This document shows, one piece after another, positions 21,504 to 64,000 of a stretch of DNA of 64,000 nucleotides. A program made the position numbers and the translations under genes. The notes beneath the pieces were generated by a model. The model saw nothing but the letters and a program-made list of their open reading frames with translations. It was not told where the DNA came from and did not search any database. The stretch's first letter is position 1; each line of letters opens with the position of its first letter. This DNA is from Ceratodon purpureus. Lineage: Eukaryota; Streptophyta; Bryopsida; Pseudoditrichales; Ditrichaceae. Location: the NCBI GenBank assembly GCA_014871385.1, contig CM026426.1, positions 68,936,674 through 69,000,673 of the forward strand, written 5' to 3'.

Positions 21504-21930
21504 GACATCTCAAATACAAGTTAACTAAAATAGTCAATGGAATGTGACCAGCTAAGCTCTTGCTTACCTCCAAATTGAATCATAGCTCATATTTATTGAC
21601 AGTTCTCAATTCTCGCTCAGACGATCACTTCACCTTGATGATTTATACCTTCCACTCTGAATGTTTGAGCTCCTAAACCCGGGCTGCTTCACCACTTGGC
21701 AGTCAACGTTCACAAGCTCACTTTTAAGCTTTGCACAAACAGTATCTGGAAGCTCCTTGTTGCAGCTCGTTGTGCTTCAGGTCTCGTTTTCTGCTTGTGC
21801 CTTTTGTCGTTGACGTTGTGCTGCCCCAGAAGTCTTGATTACTGCACATTGTTTTAGCAATTCACTTATGTTGTGTTCTGACAGTGTGATATCAATGTGT
21901 TTAGGAACTGCGTAGTTTGGTGTTGTCAAC

Positions 21931-32600: not shown

Positions 32601-32621
32601 GTCGAGGTGAAAGAGCCATAG

Positions 32622-33620: not shown

Positions 33621-33621
33621 G

Positions 33622-33660
33622 ATATCCGCACATATCCGCACAAATCCGCACATATCCGCG
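33622..33660 (+). repeat. 10-bp tandem repeat, four units
   Basis: ATATCCGCAC repeated with one substituted unit and a shortened last unit. It lies at the 3' end of the acidic gene remnant. Confidence 0.8.
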
Positions 33661-34949: not shown

Positions 34950-37374
34950 ATGGCGAGCAGCGTCCGGGACTTGACTCAGAAGTACCGGGAGGCTGTGCGC
35001 GCTGCTGCCGTTGCGAATGGTTACGATGAGGTAATCCTTGAGGTCTGATATGTTAGGAGGTTTTAGTTTTGGATCGTGTGTTTGGAGGTTTGGTGTTGTC
35101 TGATGTCGTCTGACCTAAACTCTTGAGGCGTGGTTTCTTGAGGCTTGATTTGGTATTAGATTGTTTGCGCTTATTGTGCGGGAGTTGTTGTGACCTTGGC
35201 TTTAATAGGTTAGGGTATTGTATGAGGCGTGGTTTTTGGAGAGATTTTTCTCTGTTGTTCATGCAGTGAGTTTTTGTCGTTATGAGGAATTGTGATGTTC
35301 GTCCTCTGTGTTTGATATATTCGTGTTTGATGTCGCATGTGAATTTTGATATTTTTTGATTTGCTTGTGTGCAGGCGAGGTTGGCTAAAGTTATGGCAAC
35401 GCTTATGCTGTATACGACCTCTCCCCGCACGACGTTTTATCTGACGGCTGAAAAAATTGTGAGGCGTTTGGATGTTTCATCAGTCTGGATTTGGCCTCCT
35501 GTTTGTTTGTGAAGTCTGTTTATTAGAGATCATAATTGGAGAGTAAAGTGGTCATGTTTGTGAGATGAGCAGCTATCGAGTTTATCACTCTGTAATATGT
35601 TGCTAATGCCACTGGGATGCTGGATGTTTGGTAGGCAGCGAGCATTCGAGACTTGCAATCATTTATCGCTAGCCATGAGAGGAATTACGCGGAGAAACAT
35701 CGGAGCACAGAGCAAGACCGTGATAGCATTGAAAATGAGGTCGGGAAATTTTTAAGATAGTGGTTTTGTGGTAATTTTGGTTGCAATTTCTTGCAAAGTA
35801 ATCCTCAGAAAAGGCTCTGTTGTGATGCGCGTTCGTGCCTTGCTTCTGATGCCATATCTCTACCCTGATTGGTTGATTGACGGATTGATTGTTTGGTTGA
35901 TTGATAGTTGCCGAATGTTGACCCCTGCTTTGCAGGTAGCGTTGTTCATGAAAGCTTGCCGAGATAGCATTGACGCCCTGACGAGAAGCATAGGAGCCGA
36001 AGAGAAGAAGGAATTTGGGAAAAAATGGCTGCAGTCTTTGGGAAGAGGATCTTCAAATGCAGATCTCATTGCACATCAGCACGGTATGGTAGGTATAAAT
36101 TGACCATGTTGAAACTCGCATGAGGAAGGAATTCGGTGATCTTGTGACGGCAAAACCTGCTCACTGGTACATATCTTCCGAATTGTTGGTGTAGTGCTTC
36201 AATGTACTCCTTTGAACATATTTACAGTTCAGTTAGGGAGCTGGAAAGTTGAATTGAATTTGTGATTCCCAAGGCGATTAATAGACTCTGTTTAATTTTT
36301 GGATTACAGGTGTTAATCTTGAGTAAACGCCTCCAGACTATTGCTGAAGGTTTTGATGAACTCAGGAAAGCAAGATACGAAGAAGCAAATGCGAAGAAAT
36401 TGCAGAAGCGTCGAATGGACCTCCACCTTCTGCCCCCTCATGAAACTGTTCAGGTCTCGGCAACTGATAATGATGGTTATTCGAGGGATTGGCTCAAAGA
36501 AGAAAAACCACAGTTGCTGGAGAGTAGGCAACTGCTAATGGATCAAGAAACTGAGGCTTTACAGGTACACAAAGTTCTTTTACCTTAAACCCTGTACCAA
36601 ATTATTCCGGTCCTCGGACTATTTAGTTGCTCCTGACCCAGAAGTAAGTTGTGTATTTGTATATTTATGAGTATGGATATAGTTCATGGCTGGATTTGTA
36701 TTTCTTAAGCCATTTTTACAAGTTTACTGTGAGATGGGCTCTTTTAACATCCAGTTAAATTTCGCGTTTTTAGTAATAATCTTGGCTCTAATTGAACAGC
36801 GAGAGCTCGAGGAAACTATGGCGATGGCTGAAGATACGGAGAGGAAGATGATAGAGGTTTCGCAATTGAACAGTATCTTCGCCAATTACGTCCTTGTTCA
36901 AGCAAAGCAAATAGAACAAATTTACTTGCAGGTACGTCCTTGGACAAGATCTGTTTTTGTGGAAGATCATGCTTGCAGTTGATTCCCTCCCGCAATTATC
37001 ATCATGCCATCTTATACAGGAAGAGTCTTCACCGTATGGTCCCATCTTTCCCTAGATACTCTGATAATTTAGATATGTGCTTATCTGTGGATTTGTTGCC
37101 TTTGTCAAGGATTACCTGGTAGTGCCTTTGGGAGATGTGAAGAGGTTCAGGATTGATCCAACTTTATACAAGACGCGGCGGGGACACCAGTTGCCGTGCG
37201 TTGCTAACATTCGATATGCGTGTGCAGGCAATGAAGGCCACAGAATTCATGGAGAAAGGCAATAAAGAGCTGGCCAAAACGCAACAACGGAACAGTAGTA
37301 GCCGGCTTTACATTATTCTCATATTTTGTGTACTCACAACGACTCTGCTCTTCTTGGACTGGTACAACGGATAG
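34950..37374 (+). CDS. SYP81: Syntaxin-81 (SYP81/syntaxin-18/Ufe1 type Qa-SNARE)
   Basis: Seven exons, all GT-AG and phase 0: 34950-35030, 35375-35458, 35635-35739, 35936-36088, 36310-36564, 36800-36931, 37228-37374. They give 318 residues, close to the ~310 of Arabidopsis SYP81. It aligns with that protein along its length: IRDLQ..I..H..NY, TEQ..DSIE.EVA.F.KAC, IAHQHG-VLILSKRL, LL-MDQETEALQ, the SNARE helix with EVSQLNSIFANYVLVQAKQIEQIY, then KGNKELAKTQQRNSSSR, a 17-residue hydrophobic tail anchor and DWYNG. This family is the Qa-SNARE of the endoplasmic reticulum that receives retrograde vesicles from the Golgi. The stop is TAG. ATG 34950 is the first in-frame Met after the leader-intron acceptor and gives the family's N-terminus. 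No breaks are seen, so this is a functional host gene. Confidence 0.95.
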
Positions 37375-38110
37375 TGTTCTAGTCGATATGATTTGAAGGC
37401 AGCCTTCTAGGGCTTAACTATGTAAATAAAGTTCATGCCAAATATAGGTTTGTCAAGTCATTGCTTGATATCCCCCCTACCAGCTGCCAGAAATTTTCCT
37501 ATTGTTCAGAATCTTGTTATGAAGCCCGAGTTCGGAGCATCATCCTCACTCGTTGACCGTATCTTGTCACTCTTTCTACTGATGTGCACTCTGTAAGCTA
37601 TTCATTTCATAGGAAACTCTTCATACAGCTGCTAATCTAGCGATATCCTCTGCCCAGCTGATAGAAAAAGACTTACACGAGGAACTAAGGTACAGGGTAT
37701 CATTCGGAAGGGTGCAGACAGTGAAGACAGCGGCCTTGTGGAGCACCAATGGTGACATAAAAATTCCATGTTATAAGCTGATTCATGTAGCTCAATCCAC
37801 AATGTACAATCACAAAAAGGAAGCTGGAATTCATCAGGGTAGTCACTGACTTTTTAAAGCAACATGTAATGTTGGTTCAACTAGTCTTGGAGTAGGACGC
37901 TTGGCATCTAGACATTTTGATAAGAAAAGACGCGAGGCTCACCTCACAATATTCAATCTGATGAGACAATCCTAAAGCGTGCCATACGGAAGGAAGAGAG
38001 AAATCCCAAGTGTTGCCATCCCGCACAATCTGAAGTACTTTCTTGCAAATCGGCCTCTTCTCGACGGGCTTCTGATTTTGGGTTCGCGCTGGGATTCTGT
38101 TGTTGTGGCG
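37375..38110 (+). other. Intergenic region, SYP81 3' end and DUF1499 promoter
   Basis: GTAAATAAAG at about 37423 is a plausible poly(A) signal for SYP81. The stretch 37900-38110 before the next ATG is probably the promoter and leader of the downstream gene, which is in the same orientation. Nothing else recognised. Confidence 0.4.
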
Positions 38111-39604
38111 ATGGTGATGGGGAGCAACTCTGTGGTCTCAGCAACTCCTAGTTTTCGCTCCAGTGCCGTCGTCTCCACCAGCGCGAGTTCAAGCTCAGAT
38201 GGGTGCACGTCGGGGAGCTCCAGCGCTGGGAGGGTGGATGTTGGGAGGCGGGGTTTTCTGGGAGGTTTGATTGCTGTAGGAGTTGGTGGGATCAATGGGG
38301 GAGGTGCAGTTGGGGAGGAGATGGCTGCTCTGGAAGTCGGATTGCAAGAGGGGCGCCTGCGGGGATGTGATGGACGACCGCCGTGTGTGTCGACGTCAGC
38401 GTTTCAGAGCCCCAGTCGCTTCATGCCGCCATGGACTGTGAGTGCATGATCGCCACCCTCGCATTGCTTGACTCTGGTTTTAGTGTGTGGAATTGAAGTG
38501 AGACACTAGGCCTCGCCGAATTTTCTGAAGTCGGAAACGCAACCAGACATTGACGGCAAATTTTGAAAATCTCTGGGTGGGCGACTCTGTTTGCTGCTTT
38601 CTGGGGTTTTGTGGAGACGGGCAAATTTCGATAAAAGACGTTCTATTGTTTTACGGCGTCTCGTGGTTGCGCGTATGTAGTATCTCGGAACTCAAGAGCA
38701 TGCCTATGTCGCCCTCAAGAGCGCTCTGGCCCGAATGGTGAGGTATTTTCGTTATCCTCTCACCTAATCTTGCTTTCGATGTTTTCATCCTCTGAATGGT
38801 CCTGCATGTCTGCAATCGAAGCATAGTCATGTGTTTCCCAGTCCATGACGGTCTTTGTTCTAGTGGCGGATGAGCTTTGGGTTGAGTCTCTGTTGAGCTT
38901 GACTGTGTCGCGCCTCCTTTAACCAAATGCGCAGGGAGCGCAAGTGGTGAAGGAGGATGGGCGCCGATACGTGTATGCTGTGCTGCAGTCCGCGACTCAA
39001 TCTAAAGAAGATATCGATGACCTTGAGTTCCTCTTTAAGGTGTGTTCTTTAGTTGGATCAACTTCAACTCAGAGAAGTCATAGTCTACCTCTGGAACCTA
39101 TTCAATATGGGATAATCCTTACACATGAATTGTAGAGCCGTTTAGCATGTACTTTTATGAATTTAATTTGATTTTCTAATTACACACGCCTCACATGCAT
39201 GATTCTGGAACTAAGAAGGGTTACCAAACCTGTGATGGGTGGTTTATTGAGAATGGTGTATGCAACTGTATGCTGCAGGGGAAGGTGGTTTGTTACAGGT
39301 CGGTGTCGCGAGTGTTCATTCCCGACCCCCCGTTCTGTTGGTGGGCAGGCTGCATTAACGGTAGATTTCTAAATGCAATCCTTTTGTTTTTTAAATGCAA
39401 ATCCTTTGTTACTGTGTATATTTCGGGGACATATTCTGGATTATAAAATATAGAGCTTGAGTTACCTTTGGTTGATGGCTGTGAGTTGGGGCGAATGCAG
39501 GGCCAAGGAACAGAGGGCGATTGGAGAAGCTGAGAGACGACCTCGGCTGGATGCCTCTTGAAACCGATGAGGACAAACATTGGGTGCCGCTACTCTTGCA
39601 CTAA
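38111..39604 (+). CDS. DUF1499 domain protein, predicted thylakoid-lumen/chloroplast
   Basis: Five exons (38111-38437, 38681-38737, 38935-39039, 39279-39360, 39501-39604) close in phase to give 224 residues. The Ser/Thr/Val-rich N-terminus resembles a chloroplast transit peptide. It is followed by RRGFLGGLIAVGVGG, a twin-arginine signal with hydrophobic core, suggesting Tat import into the thylakoid lumen. The DUF1499 features come next: CDGRPPCVSTS with paired cysteines, a YLGTQEHAYVALKSALARM helix, DIDDLEFLF, VVCYRSVSR, and the plant-type PDPPFCWWAGCINGPRNRGR with two further cysteines and ending in an LRDDLGW block. The biochemical role of DUF1499 is not established. It lies 0.7 kb downstream of SYP81 in the same direction. 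I chose ATG 38111 because the transit-like sequence starts there; an in-frame GTG farther upstream is not a plausible plant start. Confidence 0.85.
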
Positions 39605-41165
39605 TTGAACAGTCTTAAGTGTGTAGGGACGAATTTGTATGTATGAATATTGTAATCAGCCTGAAAGCATTTTACTTGGGAGTTTTGCCCTTGACACGTC
39701 GTACAGATGATTACCATGTGGGAAATAGTCTTTTGGTTTATTGAAATCAGGATATCCTGATCGGGGTCTGAGTCCGGCAATGAACACAAGCCTAGCTCTT
39801 CCAGTCGAAAATTCGGTCCCGGCGTAAGCATGAAGTTGTGAATGCTTACGAGCTCCACAGGAACGAGGAAATCACATACAGGGAGCATTGTATGACTTGC
39901 CTCAGGATAAGTATGTGCTGGAACTTGCAATATGTGTAAGTCTTTTTGTTTTAGAATTGGTTAGTTAGAGCAGATACGTTGCTATGGGCATTTGACGATA
40001 ACTTGTATTGTATGCCACCGAGTCTGTATAAAGATGTGTGTAGAAAAGATCTAAAGTGAATGTCACCTGGAAGCGATGCTTTTGGAGGTGGTCCTATGGT
40101 GTGGCAGTTTATTCGCTTGGAGTTGTTTGCACATGTTTCTTTTCTGAAATGTAAATATTTTAATGTTTTGATTTATCTTAGAATGAAACTTCTGTACCAT
40201 GGGAAGAAATGTTTTTACAATCTCAAATCTGATGATATTTGTTACTTGTCTAAAAACATCTCAAAGGTCGAAGAAGGGCAGCTCATATTCCTCAACGAAT
40301 AGAAATCTCTAATTTTGGAAACCATGACTTTTTCCCTTTTGTCCTATGTAAAAAAAAAAAAAATTAAAAAAATCATGATTGGAATTGAGATCATAACAAT
40401 TGAATACAATTAATTTGATTTACACAATGTTCTTCACCATTTAATCAATGTTCACGGTATTTAGTTTTTATTTAGAAGCTCTACACAAATATTTCAAATT
40501 CAACACCTTTGATAATGATTTGTGTTGTATTCCCATTTTTTAAGAAATCCTTTAAAATATACTGGATTTTTGAAAAGAAAGGGTTAGATAAGATATTCAA
40601 TTTTATCTTAGAAAAGATTTCACTAATCTGATGCATCAACTATTTGAAAGTTCTACATCTATGCAACCTTTGGAATTTTAGTATAATTTGTCTTTTTTGA
40701 ATTCAAAATTGAAATTAAAATAGATAAATTTCTAGCTTAAAATATATATATATATAAAATAATATAAACAACTCTTATTGAAGGATGCCTATATTATCAT
40801 AGAATTGTTTCACATTGATTAAGCCAAACCATTTTAATACTTCATTGATTCTTCTTCATGTTCTAGAAGTTTATGAATTCCAGACTTGATTAATGTACCA
40901 ACTCCTCCTACTTTTGAACATATAATTTTCCCTAAATTGTATATTGATAAGTGCGTTTTACTTATAATATTTATTAATTTATTGTGTGAGTCTATTCTTG
41001 TCATGAAAATTTGCAATACAAAGGTGTTGACATAAGTCACCTAGTCACTTTTAGTTTTAAAAATTTAATCCAAACTTTGTGTAATTTCAAAAATACATAC
41101 CTTCCAAAATCTATTTTTCTAGTATGCATATCACAGTTCAAAAACATACAATATAGTATTCCAAT
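39605..41165. other. AT-rich spacer after DUF1499 gene
   Basis: The first few hundred bases are likely 3' untranslated sequence. From 40300 it is A/T-rich with an (AT)n patch at about 40744-40757. No gene seen. Confidence 0.5.
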
Positions 41166-41169
41166 TTTT

Positions 41170-41216
41170 TATTTTTTTATTTTTTTATTTTTTTATTTTT
41201 TTATTTTATTTTTTTG
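41170..41216 (+). repeat. (ATTTTTT)n simple repeat, LINE tail
   Basis: Six units of ATTTTTT with one shortened; it is the reverse complement of the LINE's A-rich tail. Confidence 0.8.
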
Positions 41217-41700
41217 AAGCAAATGAACTGATTTCATTGCAAGAAAGGGGGAACAACCAATCCTCAGCTGACCGAGGTCCAGTGTGGCAAACGACTAGAC
41301 TTCTAGACAGGAGACTAACCGGGACCAAGCGTGAACTCAGAACCAACTGAGCATAACACCTGTTGAGGGAATTAAGTTCCACTTCACTGTTAAGTTTGCT
41401 CTAGTTCCTAACAAGTTTCTAACTAACCAGGTAGCATCAAAGGTTACTAAGTTATCTTGAATTTGACTCTCCATGGCACATTTTTAACAAAGGCAAGTAT
41501 TTTCTTCCAGTCAATCCTACCGTAATCCAACAGGGATTTCCAAATCATCTGTCTAATTTTCTGAGCACTCCTAGCTCTTCCTTCAAACACCAAACCATTC
41601 TTGCTCAACCAAATGATCCACAACCCTCTGACACTAGAAGAGAACCCGTCGCTTTGGAGCCCAGGAAGGACGGAGCTTGACGCATTTGATCGAAAACAAT
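41170..41700 (-). mobile_element. LINE 3'-end fragment
   Basis: On the minus strand the frame at 41700-41410 reads GFSSSVRGLWIIWLSKNGLV, then FEGRARSAQKIRQMIWKSLL and ends in a stop. This is the style of the zinc-binding C-terminal region (zf-RVT) of plant LINE reverse transcriptases. It is followed at 41216-41170 by an A-rich tail of repeated AAAAAAT units, the expected 3' terminus. The 5' part is missing. Upstream homology fades near 41720. I could not fix a target duplication. Confidence 0.6.
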
Positions 41701-41719
41701 CTTATTTTGGAGTTCACGG

Positions 41720-44700
41720 TATCCGATGATAAGGGAAAACGTACTCAGATTTAGAAGCCTATCAGAGGGCTTCATTTGCCTGTGAACAGTAAACATGGCA
41801 GTGGCGGGGCCGCGCCCTCTTGTCAGTAAGCTGTAGTAATAGTTTTATCTTGTTTTCGTGGATAATACCTAGGATGGGTTTCGTAGGGACAAGAAGGGGA
41901 GGAATTCCAGGTGACAGTATGTGTCGAATTTGAGCACGACATGTCATTTCATGAATACAGAATCCCTTTCCCTTGTAAGACACTTGCATAGCACTACGAA
42001 AACCCGAAAGACTAAAGCAATAGAAGTACTCATGTGTAAGGCAAATGTGGAGAGAAAGCATATCCCTACGAAAGTCTGTTAAAAAAGAAATAGAGATACA
42101 GGAATGTCTAGCAGACAAAGTAAAACAACGACGTCATTCCCAACTGCACTCTGTCTTTGTACTGCAACACTCTGTGCCTGCTTTACCCAATTACAACCGT
42201 GGGGACCTATTTTAAAGTCCACTTCCGCTTCCCAAGAGACGAATCTGTCTTCGAAGTCACGTTTCAGTAACCACACCGGATGATGCACCATGTAACAACA
42301 AGGAACTCGGAGGACTTCAGGGGCGGGTGTTTCCTCACGCAGCCATATCTGTAAAAATTCCAATGCACAGAAGGCGAGAGTGAGGAATGGCAAAGCTCGG
42401 AATGTCGGAGCTACGAAACTGTGGACGTGTACAGATGGAACACTACTTTTTCTCTCCGTACATGCTGACAACGCGGGCGACGTACTATTACTGGTGGACA
42501 ACGAAAACAGTGGAGACAGTTCAATGCATTCTAAAACATGGAATGCACCAGGACAGAGGGATAGAATTATGTGGTACTTCACATTGTCCTCCCTCTGAAT
42601 AGGGACGCATGTACTCAGTTTCCAATCTCATCATAATACGACATTATGAGAGCAAAACAGAAGCACGTCATGTGCGATGGTAAAGACAGTCAAGATGAAC
42701 TTACCTTTAACAAGAACACGAAGAAAACGGGGCACACACACCTCCCCTCCGTTTGCGTAAGAAAGCTACGGATTAGTTAGGAAATTAGGTTATTTACTAC
42801 GAAGTTCCCACAGTGCACAGTGCTTACTCGAATCACAGATACTCCAGAGGAGTTCAAAGAAGACTCTCACATCCTCCATACTCCACTATTCAGAGAGAAC
42901 TTCCAACGCGGGTTAGGAAACCTACATACATATTGCAGTAAGCCTTATCAACAAACTTCAAAACAACCCTACTGCTCTTGCCAATAGAATGAAACCGGAT
43001 ATATCGACATATCATTCTGTACTATCGGAGCAAAAACAGTCATCATAGATGACATGAACTACAGTGGAATGAGGGACATATACGAATGAACAAAACAATA
43101 ATTGAAACCCTAATGCCCAACTACTCGGGTGCCTCCCGAAGAGTGACTCCCAATAACAACAACACCGGCAAATGCAGAAGTAAATGAAGAATAAGGAATG
43201 CAGCAGAGAAGAGCAGTCAATGCGAGCAATGCGGTCACATAAACAAATCAACCGAAGTCCCCCACAACAAATCAGATTCGGAGAAGGCACCCGCTTACCT
43301 CACAAAGTCCACGACGAAGCACAAGGGAGGTTCAGGAAACAAGTGCGGGTAACTCAAGGGGAGCACCTCAATTTATAATGGAAGACGGGAGTCCTTGATG
43401 AAGGTTTAGGCTGTTCGCAGTCAAGAAGAATAGCCCACATCCGAGAGCTATGGCAATCAAAGAGGAAGGTTTTCATATGACTGTCGAATAGAAGTCATCA
43501 TTGCACCATTGAGGAGAAGATGGAGTGACTGACATTGCCTAGGTATGGTAGACTGTGGGGCATTTCCATCTCAGGCACCACCATGAATGTCCACCCCATG
43601 ATTGATTTCCATTGAATGACGTTTGAGTGATTCGTTTCCACAATGTTTGATCACTGGCTTGATGAAAACGAAATTCTGCTTTTCCATTCCATCATGCCCG
43701 ATGTGTATGGGATGTCCTTGTGATATGACGCTCTCCCCATGTCGGGTGCCCTACTCTCTTATCAGCCCTGTCAGAACAGAACAGAACGTAGCAGATGATC
43801 ATGATTAGCAGACGTCGATGTCAATTCGATGCAGGCTGATTTGTTGAGGATTCCTTATTTCTTGCATCCATCATTCTAGTCAGGACGTCAGGAACTCCTC
43901 CTACCCTAGACATTCTGAGTATGATGTTTAGAGGAATTCCTAATCATTAATTCAAGCCTTACGTGTCTTAGTGATTTCAGCATTACTTTACTTTGATGAA
44001 GAGGATAGGGACTCACGAAAAGGGACAACACAGCATACATTGTAAAGATTGTAGATTTTCAGGTATGGCATGGAATTGTACACTGAGTGGAGATAGTAAT
44101 ACCAGAAGTCATTATCTTCAGTGAGAATGGAACGCACTACTCAGGTATTAAACGTACTTAACGTTATGAAGATGTACTCATCTCCTTCTCACCTCTCACT
44201 ATTACGCCACATTCGTACGCATGAAACCAATTCCTGTGTCAAGTCTGCGAATAGAATCCACAGCATGAAGTAAACATTCTTGACCTCATCAAATGAGAAT
44301 GAAATCGGGAATCGAATGGCAGCCATTACAAAGATTCGTATAGCAATGTCCTCATTCACCTTTTGCAGATAAGTTCAGTGATACTCTGAGTAAGTGAATG
44401 GAATTACTGGAATTTATACGATTATCCTTTCTTGGTGATATATCACTTCCAACATTGAGTGATGATAATACCTCTGAGATTCGGTGACTGGGAAACATTT
44501 TATGCCTTCCTCCATGGAAACCGTATTCATCCGCTTCTTCATATGACTCCCACCTCCTAAACTGCCTTACCAAAAGCAGAGGTCAATAAAAAAAAACGCT
44601 CGGTACTTCTGCCTCCGTGCTATTTTCAAGGGTCCTGCCAAAATCATAGTATAAACTGTGACGGTATGTCTCCCTTATTACAGAAAATGTCTTCCCTTCA

Positions 44701-48000: not shown

Positions 48001-50167
48001 CAATCAAGCGGAAAGCAATGTCAAACTCATTACCTCCCAGTATGGCAAGCGGAATAGAGCAGGGATTCGTTTGATTCCAGTTCTTCGAACAGGGTCGGAT
48101 TCTGGTCTTCTTCCAACATCATTGAGCCACCTCCTTCGCTCCTCCCCGGCCGCTTTAGCCTGTGAGCCTGTTATGGGTGGGGGTGCAGCACGATGTTCGC
48201 GGCCTTCGAGTTTACTCATGTCCGCTCTAAGGGGGTGACCATCATACAACCACCGTCTTGCACACTTACAGAATACGTTTTTATGTAGAAACTTTGACCT
48301 CCTTGATCGAAAGCCTTCTCCACAGACGGAACACCCCATGAATCCCTTAGTAACACATCCGGCCATCATCCCGTAGGCCAGATAATCCCCTACAGTCCAT
48401 ATGATCATTGCCTTCATCATGAAGTGTGAAGATCTCTTGTAATTAGCGGCATCCATACACTACACTCCATGATTCCACAATTCCAGGAGTTCATCGATCA
48501 ATGGATCGAGGAAAACATCAAACTGCTCCCCCGTTACAGACCGTGGTCCAGGTATTAGAATAGTCAGAATCATAAAATACTTCTTGGTTGTCAGCCATGG
48601 AGGAATGTTGTAATTCAACAATAGCACAGGCCATAGTGAGTACACACTGCGCTCGTCACCTGAGGGATTGATTCCGTTTGCCACTAATGCCAAACGGACA
48701 TTCCTGTCCTCATTACCAAATTCGTGTTGGAAGCGTCTGTTTATATACTCCCATTGCTTAGACTGTGATACATGTCGCATAATGTTGCCGTCGAAATCCT
48801 GAACAGCCCACCAAGTCATGGCAGCGGCTTGCTCTGGGCTACGGTACATTCTCTTCAAGCATGGTGTGAGGGGAAAATATCTGGCTACCTTTTGAGAAAC
48901 CTCTGACCTCCCAGACTGCCTCTTCCGATGTGCTCGACATCGTGGGCAGATTCGGGCGTCCTTCAGATCCCCATGGTACAGAACACAATTATTAGGGCAA
49001 ACGTCTATAGTTTTGAAGGAGTGTCCAAGGCGCTTCAAGTACTCCGAGGCTTCAAGTACTCCGAGGCTTCCTGGTATGACCGAGGTAGGGAATTCGGCTG
49101 TGGCAACACTGTCATGCTAAGTGTCCGGAGAAGTTCATCCAGATACGTGCTAGAGCAGTTGTGGAGCTTTCCCAAACTCAGGAGCAGATATGTTGCTCCC
49201 ATGCTGGAGTGCTCCGATCCATGGTATAACGGCGTAGCGGCAGCCTCCTCCAGTGCGGATACAGCTGCGTCGTCATCATTTTCATTCTCCCCCCATGACA
49301 AGTCTTTGTCTAACACAAAATCTGCAAATACACCCCCTTCTGTGCCGGGGATATCGCCTAAACCGACTCCAGCATTTTCCACCTCCATGGGCTGCGCATC
49401 GGGACATACTGGATTTTCTTCATTTGCACTTCTCATGTTCTCGTCACCTCTTCCATCTTCTGAACCGGTGACTGGTGGCTCATCCGGTACGGGCTGTTCT
49501 AGGGGATTCTGCAGCGGACTATGTTGGTCGGGACACTCCTCCGACGGTGAATGCATGTTCGTAGTTCCTACGTTGACCGTCTCCCTTGCCTTGGTAGCCT
49601 CCCTGTAGATGCGGTCCGCCATATCCAGTGACTCGATTAGCATTCGCTGGACGTCCATGCCCAGATCGAGTTCAGCTGGAACATTGCCTACACCTCCCAA
49701 TGCTACTTGTGCACCGTAGTACCAACTCATATGATCGTCCCATTCATCATTTGATGAATCACCTTCATATCCCTGAGTGCATCAACATTACACTCGAAGT
49801 CAGCAGATACTGATATTAAGAGAGTAAGGTAGAGGGACCGCAATTGTGGTTACAGAGGATGCGGCCATGACTATCCAACTTCCATGTAGGTGACAAACAG
49901 TTTTAGAGTCATAACAAATAACATCGTTCTGTCACATACCTCTGTGGACCAAAAAAACCATGGATGTCTTCTGTTAGCTCTCAGGCATCTGCGGTAATTC
50001 GTGAGAATTTTGAGGGAGTGCTGTTCCTTCATGCACAAATTGCAAGGGCATCTTAATCTAATTAACCCTTTCGTTGCAGCCAGCTGAAGTTCCCTCTGAA
50101 GTAGCTTCGCCTCCCGAGCGCGTATTCGGCGCTCATCTGGAACGGATCGTCGAATGTTCCCTGCCAT
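45080..50167 (-). pseudogene. CACTA (En/Spm) Tnp2 transposase, decayed copy
   Basis: Minus-strand exons: 50167-49940 (GLIRLRCPCNLC), 49772-48034, 47196-46295, about 46060-45571, and 45439-45080. The second holds the Transposase_21 start and core: PLYHGSEHSS, LPRSYQEASEYLK, CPNNCVLYHGDLKDARICPRC, then CVTKGFMGCSVCGEGFRSRR and IPALFRLPYWE. The third begins ALPVRHTLDVMHIEKN and includes a DUF4218-like HFPPGFRNVM, then GPVHARWMYGVERYLGHLKS and RNKARPEGSIAMGYMYEEAL. The fourth is DUF4216-like (YGYHFQVDDEQG, VGIIKDIVVVDYG) and joins exactly to VYFVDDFQDPEWKIVQQIEP in the fifth. In-frame stops lie at 48460-48462 (TAG), 46720-46722 (TAG), 46615-46617 (TAG), 45661-45663 (TGA) and 45212-45214 (TAG). 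A 17-bp tandem duplication at 49033-49066 shifts the frame. It is not functional as read. Confidence 0.9.
49033..49066 (-). repeat. 17-bp tandem duplication in Tnp2
   Basis: CTTCAAGTACTCCGAGG occurs twice in a row (plus-strand sense). Seventeen bases is not a multiple of three, so it breaks the frame between LPRSYQEASEYLK and RLGHSFKTIDV. Confidence 0.9.
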
Positions 50168-54906: not shown

Positions 54907-57649
54907 TAAAAAAACATTAGAAATGTATATATAGTTGTCAAACTTAATAATTCATTAGAGAGTGAGCATCATCTAATATAAAATAAACTAAATAATAGAT
55001 TGAATCGGGTAATGTTCATTATTGATTGGAGGTCACTACTTAAGAAGTTAAGTTTTATTAAAAACAAATTTATCCTTCACAGCAATAATCCTCATAAATA
55101 TTGATTTACTCGAAGCTTTAGCTGTTGATTGTGCCTACAATTACGTGCTTTATCAATGTTTTCAAACGTATTAATTTCTTTGAGAACTACGAATCAATTA
55201 GAGGATTCTATCATTTTTTTAATATGATTTAAAGTAATATTTGTATTTTTTAAAAATCTATGTTATACCTATTGTCATATACCTTATTAACAAATACATC
55301 ATATTACCATTCCATACCTAAAATTACACAGGATTTGAGATTTACTTGAACTAACCCAAGATTAGAGGAATAGAAAGTTCCTACAAACTCCGTTAGGATG
55401 CATGCCATAAAGAAGACAAAGTTGATGTTATAGTCTTGAGAATTCATGTGAAATTTAGTCAATATTATCTTTTTATCCAATCTATAGAAGAGGTTGAATT
55501 AGATATAATAATGCTAACTTCTTTTTAAGAAAATAAAACATGGTTTTTATTATTGAAATAATATTTCAACATAACAATGTAACTATTGAAACTATATCCG
55601 TATAAGCCCCTCCTTGAGTTCTTCATTAATATAACTTTGTAAAAAAAACCAGTCTTTGAACATTTTAATTATACATAATTATGTTGTTCATCATGTATAA
55701 TTAAAGACATTTGAAAACATAGTTAGAGCACGAAATTTGAGAAGCCTTCCATAGTTTCTGAATTCATCAACTGCATTTCATCATTTGAAGTTTAGGGCTT
55801 TGGCTTCATCTGAATTTTCATCATTTAATTTGATAATTTGGTATAGAGTCAACAAAACATTATTTAACAATCACATAATGAGAACTTAAATTCATGTAAG
55901 CGAGTGTGAATGATTTAATTGAAACATGAATATTTAAACACAAATTAAAGCCTGTTTTTTGTATAAAAATAATTTGTTTCTCAACACAAATCTTTCATGT
56001 TTATGTATGATTTTAAATATTAAAATTTATGATTTCTATAACTTTTTATTTTATTTTGGATTGATGTATAGGTTTCTCTCATTACAAAATTCTACTATAC
56101 AAATACTTCTAACATTAAAGAAAAAACTAATATAGATTTTCAACTAAAAAGACCGCGTATATTCTATTTGTCATTATCAAAAAGATAACTTCAATTTTGA
56201 ATTTCATAACTTTATCAAAAATATATTATTTTTGTATTTGAATTTACTTTTAAAATCTAATATAATGGTAAAAAGTGAAATTTGTAAGGTAAAATGTAAG
56301 GATGCTAAAAAATGTGTATTGTATTAAAAAGAATAAAATTAGAGTACTTAGACTACAGATATGGACAAAGAATCTATGCATATTACACTGTACATCATGA
56401 TATACTTGAAAGGGAAATACTTTATATATTTTTCATAGAATCTACAAATGTTCAAGATTTTTAGTTTTTAAATGCTTGGAGTAGTGATCCATTCATACCT
56501 CTATGAGAATTAATTACCTAAAAAAACAGTAACTACACTCTAAATCCATCTTATCTGTAGATAATACTAATTCTAAATGTATAGATGTGAAAGATACAGC
56601 TAGTATGAAAACACAACCACGGATGACAAATTTCCATATATGTCATAATTTTAATTTTTGATGATTTTCAATATAAGACTAATAAAATTTATATTTGGAA
56701 GTATAGATAATGAATTGAGTTTTAAATAAAAGTTTAAACTATATTACGCAATAAAGGTATAAATTGAAGGATAAAATAAAGAGTTGAAATATAAATACTA
56801 TATGTTTTTATATGTATAATTTGTATAAGTAAGGTTTTTTAATATATATTTTGCATTTTTTTAAATTTTTATACCAGGTACACAAAAACTTAAAAAACTT
56901 CTATGACACTTTCTACAAGCCTCAAATGACTATCGAATTGTGGTTTTTCACAAAAAGTACAACTAGAAAGGTGAAAAAATTAAATTTGTAAAATAAAAAA
57001 AAATAAAAAACAGTAAAGACAAACAAATTCTAACCCTAGGCGCCCAGTAACTTTAGCCATCACAACCACAGCCTCGTTCGCCACAGCAGCTTGTCCTCAC
57101 GTCGACTCCCCTTGGGCCACACCCTCCCCGCCCTCCTCTGTCCCCGCACCCCCTCGCGGCGTCGCCCTCCTGCTTGCACCCCAGCCAGTTGAGGACTATT
57201 GCAACTGATCTCTCCAATTTGGAATCATATGACATTCCGTGAAAGCTGTAATTGAGTTCGTTCCCTGCGATTCTGTGTGCTCTTGTTTTATCGTCGATTT
57301 ATTGTCAAATGCCTACTTGTTCTCTGAGTCAATACGTCTCAGGGCACTGTTATATCTTATTACCAAGTTATTGCTCTACCATTACATATGCAAACTGGTG
57401 CTGTCTGGTTGCAACGTCCACTTTAGAAAATAGATACTGGCAGGAGTCCGTCAGGACCAGGTATTCTGTGGTAACGTTTCCGCAAATAGCATGTGGGTCG
57501 TCAAATATCCGGATGCCGGAACCTATCATGTAGTATTGAGCATACTTTTTTGGGACCTTTTTGTAAAGACCTGTTGATTGCAAATAATATCTGCACAAGA
57601 ATTCTGTTAGATAATTGTGTTCCTTCCTGAGACTGTTGCTTTGTCGTAG
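54907..57649. other. AT-rich stretch with a GC-rich island
   Basis: No gene seen up to 57040. At 57055-57190 an abrupt GC-rich patch encodes nothing convincing on either strand; it could be a promoter or a retroposon 5' piece. A 76-codon minus-strand frame at 57598-57368 has balanced composition, but nothing else supports it. Confidence 0.4.
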
Positions 57650-57965
57650 AATTAGATTTAGCCTTGTTAGGAAAACTAGTAACGAAGCTATTATTCAGGA
57701 TACTCTCTTAGGTTTTGACGCAGATTGGCTAGCTCAAGGCTTACTGGGCTCTCGGAATGGGCTTTCTGTCAAGTGGAATCTTGTTCATCCTGACGGGCTC
57801 CTTCCGAACTGGCTCTAATCCTCCCTTGGTGGTTCTGTTTTTTTCCGTTTGTCATGGTCTTTTCCCCCAAGAAACTTATGTCCGAGAAGGGTTAGGTGTA
57901 TTCGTTTGCTCTTGCAACGAAGCCGCTAATTTGCTCCAAAAAAAATAAAAAAATTAGATTTAGCC
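57650..57965 (+). mobile_element. 5'-truncated LINE insertion with 14-bp target duplication
   Basis: AATTAGATTTAGCC occurs at 57650-57663 and again at 57952-57965. The 288 bases between end GCCGCTAATTTGCTCC and then an A-rich tail. The body carries the end of an open frame (ADWLAQGLLGSRNGLSVKW). Perfect 14-bp direct repeats plus a 3' A tail mark target-primed retroposition of a severely 5'-truncated LINE; the tail style is like that of the 41.2-kb copy. Confidence 0.8.
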
Positions 57966-58205
57966 CCTTTTTGTCAATGAGAACAAAACATTTCTTGTAG
58001 TGTACATTAACCTAAATTTTGTTCACTCATTTTTACTAAACATGTTTTGATTTGTATTTCTAAACTGTGGAAGCAGGAAAAACTAATGAAGTCCAAACAT
58101 AAACCAACTACTATGGATTCTCAACTGACTCCCTCTTCAAAGAAGGTGAGTAATTTACACTCCCTAAGCTGGTGTGCAGATCATCTAACAACTCAATTTT
58201 AGATA

Positions 58206-58850
58206 AAATATATTCTATGATGTTTTTATTGAATGGACTGTAGATTCCTTTTACATCAATTTATTCTTTTTACAATTAGGAACTTGATTGTATTTGTGCA
58301 AGGCTGATTGGTTGGCATAAAGGGTCATATGTTGAAATAGGAATTGTGAACAGTGTAGGAATTGTACTCTTGTGCACACATGTGCACTTGTTAGTTACAA
58401 AACCCATCACTGTTTCACAAGACCTTTCTACCTGTATATGCACCAGTAAGCAACCAACTGAATATGCACCAGTAAGCAACCAACTCTAAATAAGTTAGTG
58501 AGTGATTGTTCATATGAGTGATGTCACTGTAGACAGGTTAGTAGATCCCCCCTTTCACTGATTTCACTTCAAATTAGACTAACATCCGCTCATTCTTTAA
58601 CAAAGTGATTGTTGATGCATGGATTGTAGATTCTTTTTACATCACCTTATTCATTGACACAGTTAGGAACCTGATTATATTTGTGCAAGGCTTATTGGTT
58701 TGCATAAAGGGTCATATGTTGAAATAGGAATTGTGACCAGTGTAGGAATTGTACTCTTGTGCATTGATGTATGCACTAGTTAGTTACAAGACCTATCACT
58801 GTTTCACAAGACCTTTCTACATGTATATGCACTAGTTAACGGCTTTATTT
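58206..58850 (+). repeat. Intronic repeat dimer A (two ~330-bp units)
   Basis: Two units, 58206-58560 and about 58608-58850 (the second shortened), share GGTCATATGTTGAAATAGGA, GTGCAAGGCT and CACAAGACCTTTCTAC phrases. The pair, with its linker, recurs at 60737-61480 in the same orientation. Confidence 0.85.
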
Positions 58851-60736
58851 GTTTTGGTAAATTTCAGGTGAGAAAAGGTTGGGAATGCTCAACATGTTCT
58901 TACATTTTGTAAACTGAGATTGCTTTTGAGCAACATATTCAAGGGTTATTGCATAGAAAGAATTGTGCAAACATGAAGGCAGTTGCATTCATTGTGGATA
59001 TTCAAGCTTCGGAGAAACACTTAGAGGTGTTCAATACAGCATACATTGAGGTGATTTTCCATTTCATCAATTCATGATTGTTTTTGTATATTGTTTTGTT
59101 TTTAAATATTTATTTAATTGATTTTTTATTGTTATCTTTTTTAGGCCCAAAATCCGTTACTACCTCATCAAAGGAGATGCAAGATTTGTCCTTCTCCTGC
59201 ATTTTCGTATGACACTCAATTACAAGAGCATTTGAAAGGCAAAAAACAGAAGAAAAGAGTTAAATCTCTTCAAACCAATTGCTACTTGAAAAACGTAAGT
59301 GGATTCTTACATTTCATATTGATTTGAAAAATGTAAGAAATAAAAATTAGACTGTGATTAGTTAATTATATCTAAATCTAATCTGTTGGAACAGTATCAT
59401 ATGTGATTCTTGATTAAGATCTAATTTAGATAACTAGATGATTGTTTATTTATATTCAATATAATTTGATGTTGATATATATTTTAATTTAATTAGATGA
59501 TTCATCAGTTACCTGTAATTGTTGATTAAGATTTTTCTTAGAACAAAAGCACTTGTGGTTATTTTATTTGAAAACAGTCGTAAAAATAGACTAGGATAAT
59601 TGATTTACATCAAAATTTGAGAATATGGAACAACAATATTTGTGGATGTTGGTTTAACTCAAACTGTTGACAATGATTATTGATTTTAGATTTGATTTTG
59701 ATTTGATTTAATTTGATTTGATTTGATTTAAAAATTTGTCCAGACATCAATAGATCTTTCATATGCATTGTAGTGATTATTTTAACAACCACAACTGTTT
59801 TTATCAGGATGAACTGTTTTCCGAAAATAGAGATCAAGAACTCACTAATTTGAAAGAATACATAGATTCTTTTCAAGATCTAAAGGTAAAGAAATTTCAC
59901 TTTTAGATGACTATAAATGACTTGGATTTTACTATATTTGCTAATTATACTATATTTAGTTGAATTATACTTAACTTCCGTATTACATTGAGCTATTTAT
60001 CCATAATACTTTGGTTTGTATTACTATGTACATGATTATGAAGAGGCCATTGAGAAATCTGGCACATATTCTATGTCAATGAATATGGATGACAGTGCTG
60101 ATAGTGAAGTTATCAAGTGCTTAAGGCAAAGAGGTTACAGCATTCTACTTAGCATTTCTAAAGTGGTTTACAGACGAGATGCTTGTGACGGGCTTCTTCA
60201 AGAAATCATTGATTCATGTGCAGTGATGGGAGGAGATTCCATAGAAGCCATTATTCTGTTTGATTCTTTTTCTCCAAGCACACATAGTATGATAGCTAAT
60301 GCCTTGAATGCACTATATCCTTTGTCCAGCTTGTTAAGAAGACAGAGGGTTGATCAGAAAGATGCAATGGTATTGTATCGTCATAGAGTTATGGGAGCGA
60401 CACCATATGGTATTTACTAGCAAAATCGTCGTTCAGAAGAACTCAAATTGAATGGACCAACAAAAGAGCAACTACATGAAGTGGGAGGAGTGCTTGCTAA
60501 ATTCATGAGTGATAACTTGGATAATCACTTCAAGTCATGGATGGATGCGTTGAGGGATTTGACAAGTCCAGACATGGGTCACTTTATGGGTAGACTAAGG
60601 GATACACCCTTTACTACCATGAGATTGACCAGAGATTTTTGGGCAATCCCGCACATCGACCGTGGAGATGCTGCTTTCAGCTTCATTCTCTGGTTTGAAA
60701 AAGGTATGTTTTCTAATTTACAACTGAATTTTAAAT

Positions 60737-61480
60737 TAAATATATTCTATGATGTTTTTATTGAATGGGCTGTAGATTCCTTTTCCATCACCTTATTCAT
60801 TGACACACTTAGTAACCTGATTATATTTGTGCAATGCTGATTGGTTGGCATAAAGGGTCATATGTTGAAATAGGAATTGTGACCAGTGTAGGAATTGTGA
60901 CCAGTGTAGGAATTGTACTCTTGTGCACACATGTGCACTTGTTTGTTACAAAACCCATCACTGTTTCACAAGACCTTTCTACCTGTATATGCACCAGTAA
61001 GCAACCAACTCTAAATTAGTAAATGAGTGATTCTTCATATGACTGATGTCACTGTACACAGGTTAGTAGATTCCCCCCCCCCCTCACTGATTTTACTTCA
61101 GACTAGACTTACATCAGCTCATTCTTTGACAAAGTGATTGCTGATACATGGACTGTAGATTCTTTTTACATCACCTTATTCATTGACACAGTTAGGAACT
61201 TGATTGTATTTGTGCAAGGCTGATTGGTTGGCATAAAGGTTCATATGTTGAAATAGGAATTGTGACCAGTGTAGGAATTGTACTGTAGTGCACTGATGTA
61301 TGCACTAGTTTGTTACAAGACCCATCATTGTTTCACAAGACCTTTCTACTTGTATATGCACTAATAAGCAACCAACTCTAAATAAGTTAGTGAGTGATTG
61401 ATTATATAAGTGATGTCACTGTAGACATGGTAGTAGATTCCCTCCCCTCACTGATTTTACTTCAGATTAGACTTACATCA
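60737..61480 (+). repeat. Intronic repeat dimer B (two ~340-bp units)
   Basis: Units at 60737-61075 and about 61137-61480. Linker bases (CAAAGTGATTG[CT]TGAT[AG]CATGGA) match those of dimer A, so the dimer was copied as a whole. It lies in the 1.1-kb intron between the two halves of the oxygenase domain. Confidence 0.85.
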
Positions 61481-62085
61481 GCTGATATGTCCAGTTAGTG
61501 ATATGTAGAACACTTGGGTAACAATTCTGGAAACGAATGATTGATTCCCCAAACAAATCTGAGTTCTTATTTGGTAGTAATTGACTATAATTTAAATGTA
61601 TGTTTTCTTATATCATATAGTAATCTGCTGTTTAGAATAAGTTTTAGAACAAAAGTTTGGATTTAACATCAAATTTGTGTAGCTTACCACCAAGTCAGTA
61701 AACATATCATCAAATTAAAGTATCTGAGTGTATTTTTGTGATTATACAAATGTAGAAAGTGTTCTGATTATAGTGAAAAAAAATTATGTGCTAATGAGTA
61801 ATTTGTTGCAATTTGAATACAGAACTTGAAGGGGAAACAGGAGATTGTATCAGGACTCAGTTTCTTTTACCGGATTGTGGTTATTTTCTAAAACCAGGAA
61901 AAGGTACCGTTGTTGGCCTCAACTGTGCAAAAATCAAGCATGGATCACTAGAAAATGAGGGCTATAAACAGTATGGAGTTGAATTGACCTATAAAAAAAG
62001 AGTGGTCTTTGGATGTAGGAATGAATTGGCAAAGAAGTTTGGCTTCGATTTCACTATTAAAGAACCTGAGCAGGAGTCTTGTTAA

Positions 62086-62810
62086 ACTACTACATGAATT
62101 ATTTCACATTTTTCAATCAGGATATAGAAGTAGTTCACATTTTTCATTTAGAGAACCTAATGTGTAATTTCATTAAACTTATACAAAGACTGAGTGAAGG
62201 GTTGACTGGTAGGAAGCTATAGAACTATGTGAAAAGTCTTTTCCTAGTATCATTAGAGATTATTTTGGGTCTGGGAGAGGCCCTCAACATGTGCCTCGGT
62301 TGTGCCCTTGGTACAGTGCCCGGAGTGAAGTAACCGGTTCAGCAGGTAATCACCATTGGTGCCAGCCTTCGGTTCCAGCATCATGTTCGCAGGGTTCGGC
62401 CAATGGCTGCAAGAGGTTGAGTTTCCCATTGTGACCTAGGTAGAACTCACACATGTTTGGACTGTACTCAATCGGATTTATTTACTAGAGAGATTTGGAC
62501 ATCTCTGTACCATGGTGGGCTGATTATACTCGAGTGACTATCCTTGAAGCCGCTTGAGTTTTCATATTATAAGATTCTATTTCTGTATTTTATGTGGACG
62601 GGGTAGTGGAGGGTTAGCCATGTCAGCTGAAACAGTGACATAATGGCCCGGGAAAATGGATGCCGAGGGTAATTGGTTCGCACACAGTCAGCTTCGGAGA
62701 TTTGGAGTAGTCTTTTGGGCCAGAATATTTGGCTTCCTCGGTGGTCTGTTGCGGCAGCAGAGTAGCGCTTCCTGCTGTATTACTTGGTTTGTGATACGGG
62801 TATATAATCG
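62086..62810 (+). other. Spacer between TET/JBP-like gene and unknown gene
   Basis: Holds the third dispersed-repeat end at 62251-62271. The part before 62811 is the presumed promoter and leader of the unknown gene. No other gene seen. Confidence 0.4.
62251..62271 (+). repeat. Dispersed repeat end (copy 3 of 3, diverged)
   Basis: CATTAGAGATTATTTTGGGTC differs from the 6027 copy by C-to-T-type changes at three places; both have AAAAGTCT about 20 bases upstream. Confidence 0.45.
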
Positions 62811-64000
62811 ATGGCAAATAGTCGGCGTCCACGGGCAGGGGTGCAATCAATAGTCGTCTACAACAACCAGGACGTTGGTGGACAGTGGATCCCGTTGCGA
62901 CTGGAGGTTGGCAGCTGGGTGACGCTGAAGCCTGCGTCCACTGGGCCGTGGGCTCGAGACTCACGCAGACAAGGAGAGGAGAGTAACGCAGGTGCTTACA
63001 AGGCACGGATCGTTGAGTTCCAGTGGAGTTACAGCACTGTTAGAGGCAAGGTTGTGATGAAACTCGAGTCCGTGTTAGTGAGGCATGCATATGAGCGTAG
63101 GCAAATCCATTTGGACCCTGTAGTTTCAGCCACCGAGCCTAGAGCCTGCAACTATCTCTATGCATCATACTGGGAGGATTGGGTCCCGCCCACGTCGATT
63201 TTAGATGTCATCCTTGTGCTGCATCATGAGGTTGGTGAGGCGACTCGTAATGGCCGAGGTTACAAGGATTTGAGGGCTGTGTATGTGCCGCGGTCTGGCA
63301 ATCAGCTCTATGGCACTCTAGAGGCACTTCCCCTTCCAGAGCTAACGGACTCAGAGTGGCCCCTCCCTGACATGCACACAAGTGAGTTTTTTAGAAGAAA
63401 GCTTGCTGTCGACATTGCTGCCGCAATGAAAGGCTCCACAGGCAGTAGGGCTGTTCATGTGCACTGGTTCATGCCGGTGCATGTGATGGTGGATTTGTTT
63501 GCCTGTGCGGATAGTGTCCGGAAAACCAGATCCATGTACATTTTTAACAACCCTTCAGAGGAACTTTTGAGTAGCTTGATGTCACTGGGTTGGGATGTCA
63601 AGTATGAGAAGGGGCGGGATGTGTTGAAGTGTGTAGTGAGTCATGACAGCATTAAGTTTAGATATCATCTGGGTCGGCAAATGCTTTATGTGAACTACCA
63701 GTACCTGCGTTATAGATGTGTGGAGGGAGACGCTTGGACTGCCATTGATCAAGCAGTTGCTGTGGAGATGGTTAGGACCTCTGTAATTTTGGAAGAGTCT
63801 TTGTTGCCGGCCATTGAAGTGGGCAGAACGTGGCCTGTGTCGCATCTTCGGAACGAGATTTCGATCATCCTCTCCAGAGACTCACTTCCAGAAGAGTATG
63901 ACCTAGTCATACAGCGGCCAGGCCAGCCTGATACCAAGGTACAATCGCAAGTTCAGTTGGTTGGTAATGGACATTGCAGTATTAATCAAAGACTGTATGT
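62811..64000 (+). CDS. Unknown protein, paralogue of the gene at 26623-27890 (cut by window end)
   Basis: ATG 62811 opens a frame with no stop through 63938 (376 codons), where AAG|GTACAA gives the same exon end as the paralogue. Conserved blocks include PLRLEVGSWVTLKPA, VRHAYERRQIHLDP, EPRACNYLYASYWEDW, SILDVILVLHHEVGE, LRAVYVPRSG, LEALPLPELTD, MHTSEFFRRK and VHVHWFMPVHVMVDLFACAD. Beyond the intron, ATTAATCAAAGACTG (63980-63994) matches the paralogue's exon 2 (INQRL), but the phase does not fit at the first AG, so the joint is open. The gene runs off the window. No recognised domain. It is intact as far as seen, and lies 0.7 kb downstream of the TET/JBP-like gene in the same direction. Confidence 0.75.
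   Translation, partial: MANSRRPRAGVQSIVVYNNQDVGGQWIPLRLEVGSWVTLKPASTGPWARDSRRQGEESNAGAYKARIVEFQWSYSTVRGKVVMKLESVLVRHAYERRQIHLDPVVSATEPRACNYLYASYWEDWVPPTSILDVILVLHHEVGEATRNGRGYKDLRAVYVPRSGNQLYGTLEALPLPELTDSEWPLPDMHTSEFFRRKLAVDIAAAMKGSTGSRAVHVHWFMPVHVMVDLFACADSVRKTRSMYIFNNPSEELLSSLMSLGWDVKYEKGRDVLKCVVSHDSIKFRYHLGRQMLYVNYQYLRYRCVEGDAWTAIDQAVAVEMVRTSVILEESLLPAIEVGRTWPVSHLRNEISIILSRDSLPEEYDLVIQRPGQPDTKVQSQVQLVGNGHCSINQRLY

What the first reader, a model, noticed from the sequence alone, without database searches (positions are those of the whole stretch)
58086..62085. TET/JBP-like oxygenase gene with zinc fingers in a plant-type genome
All core motifs of a 2OG/Fe(II) oxygenase are in order (HID, distal KIKHGS, basic residue), with two finger-like exons before it. 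Flowering plants remove 5-methylcytosine by glycosylases, so a TET/JBP-like enzyme here would be notable. The gene retains perfect splicing architecture but carries one TAA and one TAG in frame.
Basis: partly seen in the sequence, partly recalled or inferred. Interest (0 to 1): 0.75.

Follow-up and report, generated by a model that had tools for sequence, protein, structure and literature searches.

The report
Broken gene for a TET-like DNA oxidase
A eukaryotic genome, possibly a plant's, carries a broken gene for a zinc-finger protein whose enzyme part is related to the TET/JBP enzymes that oxidise methylated DNA bases, most closely to an algal one that uses vitamin C; this would be notable in a land plant, but the host is not identified.

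Summary
Six exons at 58086-62085 (+) with GT-AG introns encode 463 codons with two internal stops, against a mean of 33 in shuffled copies. Two finger-like exons precede an oxygenase domain. Best Pfam match: Tet_JBP, E 2.1e-5, below the curated cut-off. Among PDB sequences only Chlamydomonas CMD1 matches the oxygenase region at E up to 10 (E 0.0015). CMD1's own segment scores worse against Tet_JBP (E 0.10), so the missed cut-off does not exclude membership. Six reversed or shuffled controls gave nothing.

Most likely: a disabled copy of a zinc-finger TET/JBP protein whose working relatives bind nucleic acid and oxidise (or, CMD1-like, glycerylate with ascorbate) 5-methylcytosine. The stop before the HxD motif means this copy, as read here, makes no enzyme. 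No genome is held for the window, so intact paralogues, expression and host could not be tested.

The parts
57650..57965 (+). retroposon-like insert in the 5' flank (14-base target duplication 57650-57663 / 57952-57965, A-rich 3' end); not part of the coding gene
   Evidence: exact 14-base repeat, A-rich stretch before the second copy
58086..58145 (+). exon 1, start codon and 20 codons
58146..58867 (+). intron 1, mostly one full and one partial copy of a repeat shared with intron 5
   Evidence: GT-AG; self-BLAST 58188-58834 vs 60720-61363, 86%
58868..59050 (+). exon 2, U1/matrin-type C2H2 finger 1 (ligand codons begin at 58886, 58895, 58934, 58952), in-frame TAA at 58910-58912
   Evidence: Pfam zf-C2H2_jaz E 3.3e-4, 21.2 bits vs cut-off 22.6
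59145..59294 (+). exon 3, finger 2 with the fourth zinc ligand position held by Gln
   Evidence: sequence; zf-met E 0.017, below cut-off
59808..59885 (+). exon 4, acidic linker
60046..60703 (+). exon 5, first half of the oxygenase core and the stretch before it: in-frame TAG at 60418-60420, HID (His 60652-60654, Asp 60658-60660), Trp373 at 60691-60693
   Evidence: Tet_JBP, CMD1 alignment
60704..61822 (+). intron 5, splits the oxygenase core at phase 1; two copies of the intron-1 repeat
61823..62085 (+). exon 6, second half of the core: FLLP, KIKHGS (distal Fe ligand His 61939-61941), Tyr427 at the usual Arg position (61972-61974), Tyr433 (61990-61992), terminal TAA

Best explanation
This is a disabled copy, probably recently disabled (a unitary pseudogene, a dead paralogue or a null allele), of an intron-bearing eukaryotic gene of the TET/JBP superfamily. 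Working relatives would be proteins of about 463 residues with two tandem U1/matrin-type C2H2 fingers and a C-terminal double-stranded beta-helix oxygenase. Proposed mechanism of a working copy: the fingers bind nucleic acid; the core holds Fe(II) with His360, Asp362 and His416; a flipped cytosine is read by Asp365 (CMD1 Asp350) and stacks on Tyr433 (CMD1 Phe416); its 5-methyl group is then oxidised. Because Trp373 aligns with CMD1 Trp358 and the usual 2OG arginine is replaced by Tyr427, ascorbate or some other small co-substrate is at least as likely as 2-oxoglutarate. Shown here: gene structure, homology, presence of the Fe triad residues, the stops, the missing zinc ligand. Inferred: fold, substrate, co-substrate, targeting, time of loss. 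As read here, this copy cannot make the enzyme, since TAG at codon 282 comes before the HxD motif and TAA at codon 35 lies in finger 1.
For: Tet_JBP E 2.1e-5 for the 181-residue C-terminal part and 1.5e-4 for the whole; no other oxygenase family except the related Tet-like PF20515 (E 0.094). CMD1 is the only match of the oxygenase region among 177,635 PDB sequences at E up to 10: E 0.0015, 0.0037; 0.0062 with the whole protein. CMD1's own 93-residue segment scores E 0.10 against Tet_JBP, our 98-residue segment 4.3e-5. One reversed and five shuffled copies: no family at E up to 10. Alignment with the CMD1 segment: 31 of 92 aligned residues identical, but 8 of the 11 residues named for the active site in PMC7854593 that fall in it (hypergeometric p 0.006; without the three Fe ligands 5 of 8, p 0.06). 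Two stops against a mean of 33.
Against: The family scores are below Pfam's curated cut-off (24.3 vs 34.9 bits at best). CMD1's segment itself fits PF20515 (E 0.037) better than Tet_JBP. CMD1's upstream residues Arg244, Phe245 and His249, each essential there, could not be located; none of the 12 Arg between residues 231 and 359 has a His five residues on (list). Ser335 is Arg and Val342 is Ala. The Tyr427 placement rests on spacing beyond the end of the alignment. No fold was obtained (exon 5 alone: mean pLDDT 34.6). No relative was found: 3 scans of viral contigs found none; 1 scan of prokaryote genomes gave one 19-residue match (63% identical), which I take as noise. 'Recently' rests on two stops and no frameshift, with no homologue for comparison.
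Confidence: 0.68

Rival explanations
1. The gene is not broken in the living organism: one or both stops are assembly errors, a minority haplotype, or are avoided by splicing (exon 2 is 183 bases, phase 0, so skipping it keeps the frame), and an active enzyme is made.
For: No frameshift in 463 codons, GT-AG at all five introns, Fe triad residues present. Exon 2 can be skipped in frame.
Against: Two separate stops; the second lies in the largest exon upstream of the HxD motif; finger 2 has also lost a ligand. No reads could be consulted.
Confidence: 0.2
2. The gene was cargo of a transposable element, as TET/JBP genes are in fungal DNA transposons, and has decayed with it. (Compatible with the best explanation: it concerns origin, not enzyme class.)
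For: A tnp2-type transposase lies in pieces at 48.0-49.1 kb (Transposase_21 E 4.7e-36; second piece E 7.7e-16). PMC12730594 (passages read) describes TET/JBP genes in several fungal DNA transposon superfamilies. Two inverted-repeat pairs straddle the gene: 57558-57582/62842-62866 (25 bases, 76%) and 57171-57192/62828-62849 (22 bases, 82%).
Against: The transposase is 9 kb away and on the other strand. No long inverted repeats brackets the gene: of 68 pairs in 55500-64000 the 25 longest, the ones shown, have arms of 16-34 bases, 70-94% complementary; whether any exceeds chance was not tested.
Confidence: 0.12
3. Contaminating or horizontally acquired fungal DNA.
For: Fungi carry many TET/JBP genes (PMC12730594, passages); the host is not identified.
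Against: Introns of 94 to 1119 bases, whereas fungal introns are usually under 100 bases (recalled); the PDB match is algal, though I did not check which fungal TET structures that library holds.
Confidence: 0.06
4. The organism reads TAA/TAG as glutamine, so the frame is open.
For: Both internal stops are TAA/TAG, none TGA.
Against: Seven long ORFs hold 136 CAA/CAG and no TAA/TAG in 2979 codons, one of 693 codons with 36 Gln; this count is biased, as the ORFs were chosen for being open.
Confidence: 0.02
5. Another 2OG-type oxygenase (protein, RNA or metabolite substrate) only remotely related to TET/JBP.
For: Scores below the family cut-off; CMD1's base-stacking Arg244 was not located; U1-type fingers would suit an RNA substrate too (recalled).
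Against: No other oxygenase family but PF20515 at E up to 10; the residue aligned with CMD1's base-reading Asp350 is kept.
Confidence: 0.15

Closest known systems
CMD1, 5-methylcytosine-modifying enzyme 1 of Chlamydomonas reinhardtii (PDB 7cy4-7cy8; PMC7854593)
   Same: Only PDB match of the oxygenase region; Fe triad, Thr337, Asp350, Ile356, Trp358 and Phe371 identical; Thr399 is Ser.
   Different: Ser335 is Arg, Val342 is Ala; Arg410 position is Tyr by spacing; Arg244, Phe245 and His249 not located; two N-terminal fingers here.
TET/JBP family, Pfam PF12851 (human TET2, NgTET1, fungal TETs, kinetoplastid JBP)
   Same: Best Pfam match; HxD...H residues; an aromatic at the base-stacking spacing.
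   Different: Score below cut-off; no arginine at the 2OG C5-carboxylate spacing; U1-type fingers, and no CXXC domain seen in the Pfam scan.
Tet-like 2OG-FeII_Oxy_6, Pfam PF20515
   Same: Weak match over the core (E 0.094).
   Different: Scores far below Tet_JBP for this protein, although CMD1's segment prefers it.
U1/matrin-type C2H2 fingers (zf-C2H2_jaz PF12171, zf-met PF12874)
   Same: Finger 1 has all four ligands and a near-cut-off score (21.2 vs 22.6 bits).
   Different: Finger 1 carries the TAA; finger 2 lacks its last His.

Membership tests
TET/JBP (PF12851) | Pfam score at or above the curated cut-off | tested here: not met
   24.3 bits vs 34.9, E 2.1e-5. The 93-residue segment of CMD1, a proven member, gets 12.3 bits.
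TET/JBP (PF12851) | HxD...H Fe(II) triad in a double-stranded beta-helix | tested here: inconclusive
   Triad residues present and aligned with CMD1 His345, Asp347, His397; fold not shown (pLDDT 34.6).
TET/JBP (PF12851) | Arg for the 2OG C5-carboxylate (Arg1896 of TET2, Arg289 of NgTET1) | tested here: inconclusive
   The aromatic 6 residues after this Arg (Tyr1902, Phe295; Phe416 after CMD1 Arg410; PMC7854593) would be Tyr433, which puts Tyr427 at the Arg position. Rests on spacing, not on an alignment or structure. CMD1 has the Arg but does not use it for its co-substrate.
TET/JBP (PF12851) | oxidation of 5-methylcytosine or thymine in DNA | not testable with these tools
   needs protein from an intact relative
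CMD1-type (ascorbate-using) subgroup | Trp358, Thr337, Thr399 (Ala at each abolishes CMD1 activity, PMC7854593) | tested here: inconclusive
   Trp and Thr337 kept, Thr399 is Ser.
CMD1-type (ascorbate-using) subgroup | Arg244, Phe245, His249 (Ala at each abolishes CMD1 activity) | tested here: inconclusive
   No alignment reached this stretch; none of 12 Arg at residues 231-359 has His at +5.
functional gene | open reading frame | tested here: not met
   TAA codon 35, TAG codon 282.

The most novel reading that the evidence does not exclude
A land-plant lineage had, and may still have in intact paralogues, a zinc-finger-targeted CMD1-type enzyme that attaches a vitamin-C-derived glyceryl group to 5-methylcytosine, an epigenetic pathway so far reported only from a green alga, and is now losing it in favour of glycosylase-based demethylation.
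Probability: 0.12. Interest if true: 0.88.

Novelty: new member of a known kind. Interest (0 to 1): 0.5.

Why it matters
[quoted passage not shown] PMC10573277 (passages read) says that plants were long believed to lack 5-hydroxymethylcytosine and that recent methods point otherwise. A TET/JBP-type gene in a land plant, even a broken one, would offer a candidate enzyme and a direct test: look for intact copies and for 5gmC or 5hmC in the same species.

Tried and rejected
AlphaFold of exon 5 alone gave mean pLDDT 34.6 and was not used; exon 6 was not folded, because without relatives I expected no better. A profile of our sequence plus the CMD1 segment (A1) brought back only CMD1, by construction, and did not extend upstream; its E-value is not counted as evidence. 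Scans of viral contigs found no relative; the prokaryote scan gave one 19-residue match in Micromonospora out of 46 stretches with a pattern, which I take as noise. A Tet_JBP search of that genome found nothing, but nothing rang in the 14 control genomes either, so it says nothing. PHROGs (E 0.23 and 0.81) and NCBIfam (E 0.2) gave chance-level matches. Rfam and tRNA scans of the window were empty.

Host identification failed. 16 of the 32 ORFs of 150 aa or more listed were scanned with Pfam: a tnp2 transposase in two ORFs, a weak Transposase_24 (E 0.0061), a weak RING (E 5.6e-4, below cut-off), AAA_13 (E 0.0019, far below cut-off, likely coiled coil) and matches of E above 0.01. Six frames of 29001-44000 gave no family at E up to 0.01; this scan also missed the weak Transposase_24 hit that lies inside it, so it is not sensitive. 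The other 49 kb were not scanned in six frames. The protein was compared with the window itself by tblastn: apart from the gene's own exons and their flanks, 8 rows with E from 0.10 to 9.5, taken as chance.

Literature: searches showed no title on a land-plant TET/JBP or CMD1 protein, but six of these lists were capped (20 of 709, 20 of 58, 15 of 53, 15 of 921, 12 of 26; one search showed all 4, all 2, all 24, its 1), and only the papers named in the report were opened, in passages or named sections. The two founding papers on the family (Iyer 2009, Iyer 2014) are not held. Novelty is therefore not established.

Full report
Observation. The region 58086-62085 (+) holds a six-exon gene: 58086-58145, 58868-59050, 59145-59294, 59808-59885, 60046-60703, 61823-62085 (the start of exon 5 was set to 60046, because one search's 60043 has no AG before it). 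All five introns begin GT and end AG; they are 722, 94, 513, 160 and 1119 bases long with 17 to 35% G+C, the exons 30 to 41%. The acceptor of intron 4 is weak. The joined frame of 464 codons has stops at codon 35 (TAA, 58910-58912), codon 282 (TAG, 60418-60420) and the terminal TAA. Shuffling the CDS 2000 times gives a mean of 33.1 stops and never fewer than 16; the two other forward frames hold 28 and 40, the reverse ones 22, 25 and 31. The frame is therefore coding in origin, beyond chance.

Homology. With X at the stops, the best Pfam match is Tet_JBP (PF12851): E 1.5e-4 for the whole, 2.1e-5 for the last 181 residues, 24.3 bits against a cut-off of 34.9. No other oxygenase family appeared at E up to 10 except the related PF20515 (E 0.094), with the caveat that HMMER's filters drop most matches above about 0.1. 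PDB searches returned CMD1, the Chlamydomonas 5-methylcytosine-modifying enzyme, as best match: E 0.0062 for the whole protein (where the four other matches, E 0.077 to 0.99, fall on the N-terminal finger part), and as the only match for the 306-residue (0.0037) and 181-residue (0.0015) parts. Taken alone the PDB values are modest; agreement of two libraries carries the argument. As a yardstick, the matching segment of CMD1 scores E 0.10 against Tet_JBP and E 0.037 against PF20515; ours scores 4.3e-5 and 0.24. A reversed and five shuffled versions gave no family.

Active site. PMC7854593 (section 9 in full, part 1 of 2 of section 11, and passages) lists the CMD1 residues. In the alignment A1 31 of 92 aligned residues are identical. 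Eleven of the listed residues fall in it: Thr337, His345, Asp347, Asp350, Ile356, Trp358, Phe371 and His397 are identical; Thr399 is Ser; Ser335 is Arg; Val342 is Ala. Eight of eleven against 31 of 92 gives p 0.006; leaving out the three iron ligands, five of eight, p 0.06. Past the distal His the alignment ends, and I used spacing: in TET2, NgTET1 and CMD1 the arginine (1896, 289, 410) is six residues before the aromatic that stacks on the base (1902, 295, 416) and eight before the next base-reading residue (1904, 297, 418). In our protein Tyr433 fits the aromatic and Lys435 the latter, which leaves Tyr427 at the arginine position. This suggests, without proving it, a co-substrate site of the CMD1 kind. 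Against it: Arg244, Phe245 and His249, each essential in CMD1, could not be located; none of the 12 Arg at residues 231-359 has a His five residues on.

Fingers. Exon 2 encodes C-x2-C-x12-H-x5-H, near the cut-off of zf-C2H2_jaz (21.2 vs 22.6 bits). Exon 3 encodes C-x2-C-x13-H-x5-Q: the last ligand is missing (zf-met E 0.017). Such fingers bind double-stranded RNA or other nucleic acid in their families (recalled), so they could bring the oxygenase to its target. That the fingers and the oxygenase are one gene rests on splice phases only.

State of the gene. The TAG comes before the HxD motif, so a truncated product would have no iron site. In this CDS 5.2% of single substitutions make a stop; two stops with no frameshift would fit about 40 unconstrained substitutions, near 3% (inference, wide error). 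Either the loss is recent or the stops are not real in the living organism; reads are needed.

Setting. No genome is held. The window holds pieces of a tnp2 (CACTA-type, recalled name) transposase at 48.0-49.1 kb and a weak Transposase_24 match (plant Ptta/En/Spm family, E 0.0061); most other ORFs scanned have no family above its cut-off. No gene was found that fixes the host. 'Plant' is my guess from intron make-up and these transposase matches, not a result; 'flowering plant' is not supported.

Known or new. [quoted passage not shown] My searches showed no title on a land-plant member (several lists capped), but plant protein databases were not available and the founding papers are not held. 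I therefore file it as a new member of a known kind: a broken TET/JBP-type gene with U1-type fingers and some CMD1-like active-site features. The rivals listed are not all exclusive of the best explanation or of each other.

Noticed in passing
58188-58834 and 60720-61486: Introns 1 and 5 of the gene are largely made of copies of one repeat with a period of about 386 bases (one full and one partial copy in intron 1, two in intron 5, direct orientation, 83-89% identical in pairwise BLAST), starting 42 and 16 bases after the donor sites; self-BLAST at E up to 1e-5 showed no further copy of 60 bases or more in the window.
   Followed up: partly
57650-57965: Retroposon-like insert of about 290 bases with a 14-base target duplication and an A-rich 3' end, just upstream of exon 1.
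   Followed up: partly
26727-27935 (-) and 62808-63998 (+): Two related ORFs of 403 and at least 397 aa (DNA 64% alike over 482 bases) without a Pfam family beyond one chance-level match; the second runs off the window end.
   Followed up: partly
48004-49116 (-): Transposase of the tnp2 family (PF02992) broken into at least two pieces.
   Followed up: partly
11172-13253 (-) and 21916-23397 (+): Long ORFs (693 and 493 aa); the second has a RING match (E 5.6e-4, below cut-off), and by eye both carry a similar Cys-rich motif in the C-terminal part.
   Followed up: partly
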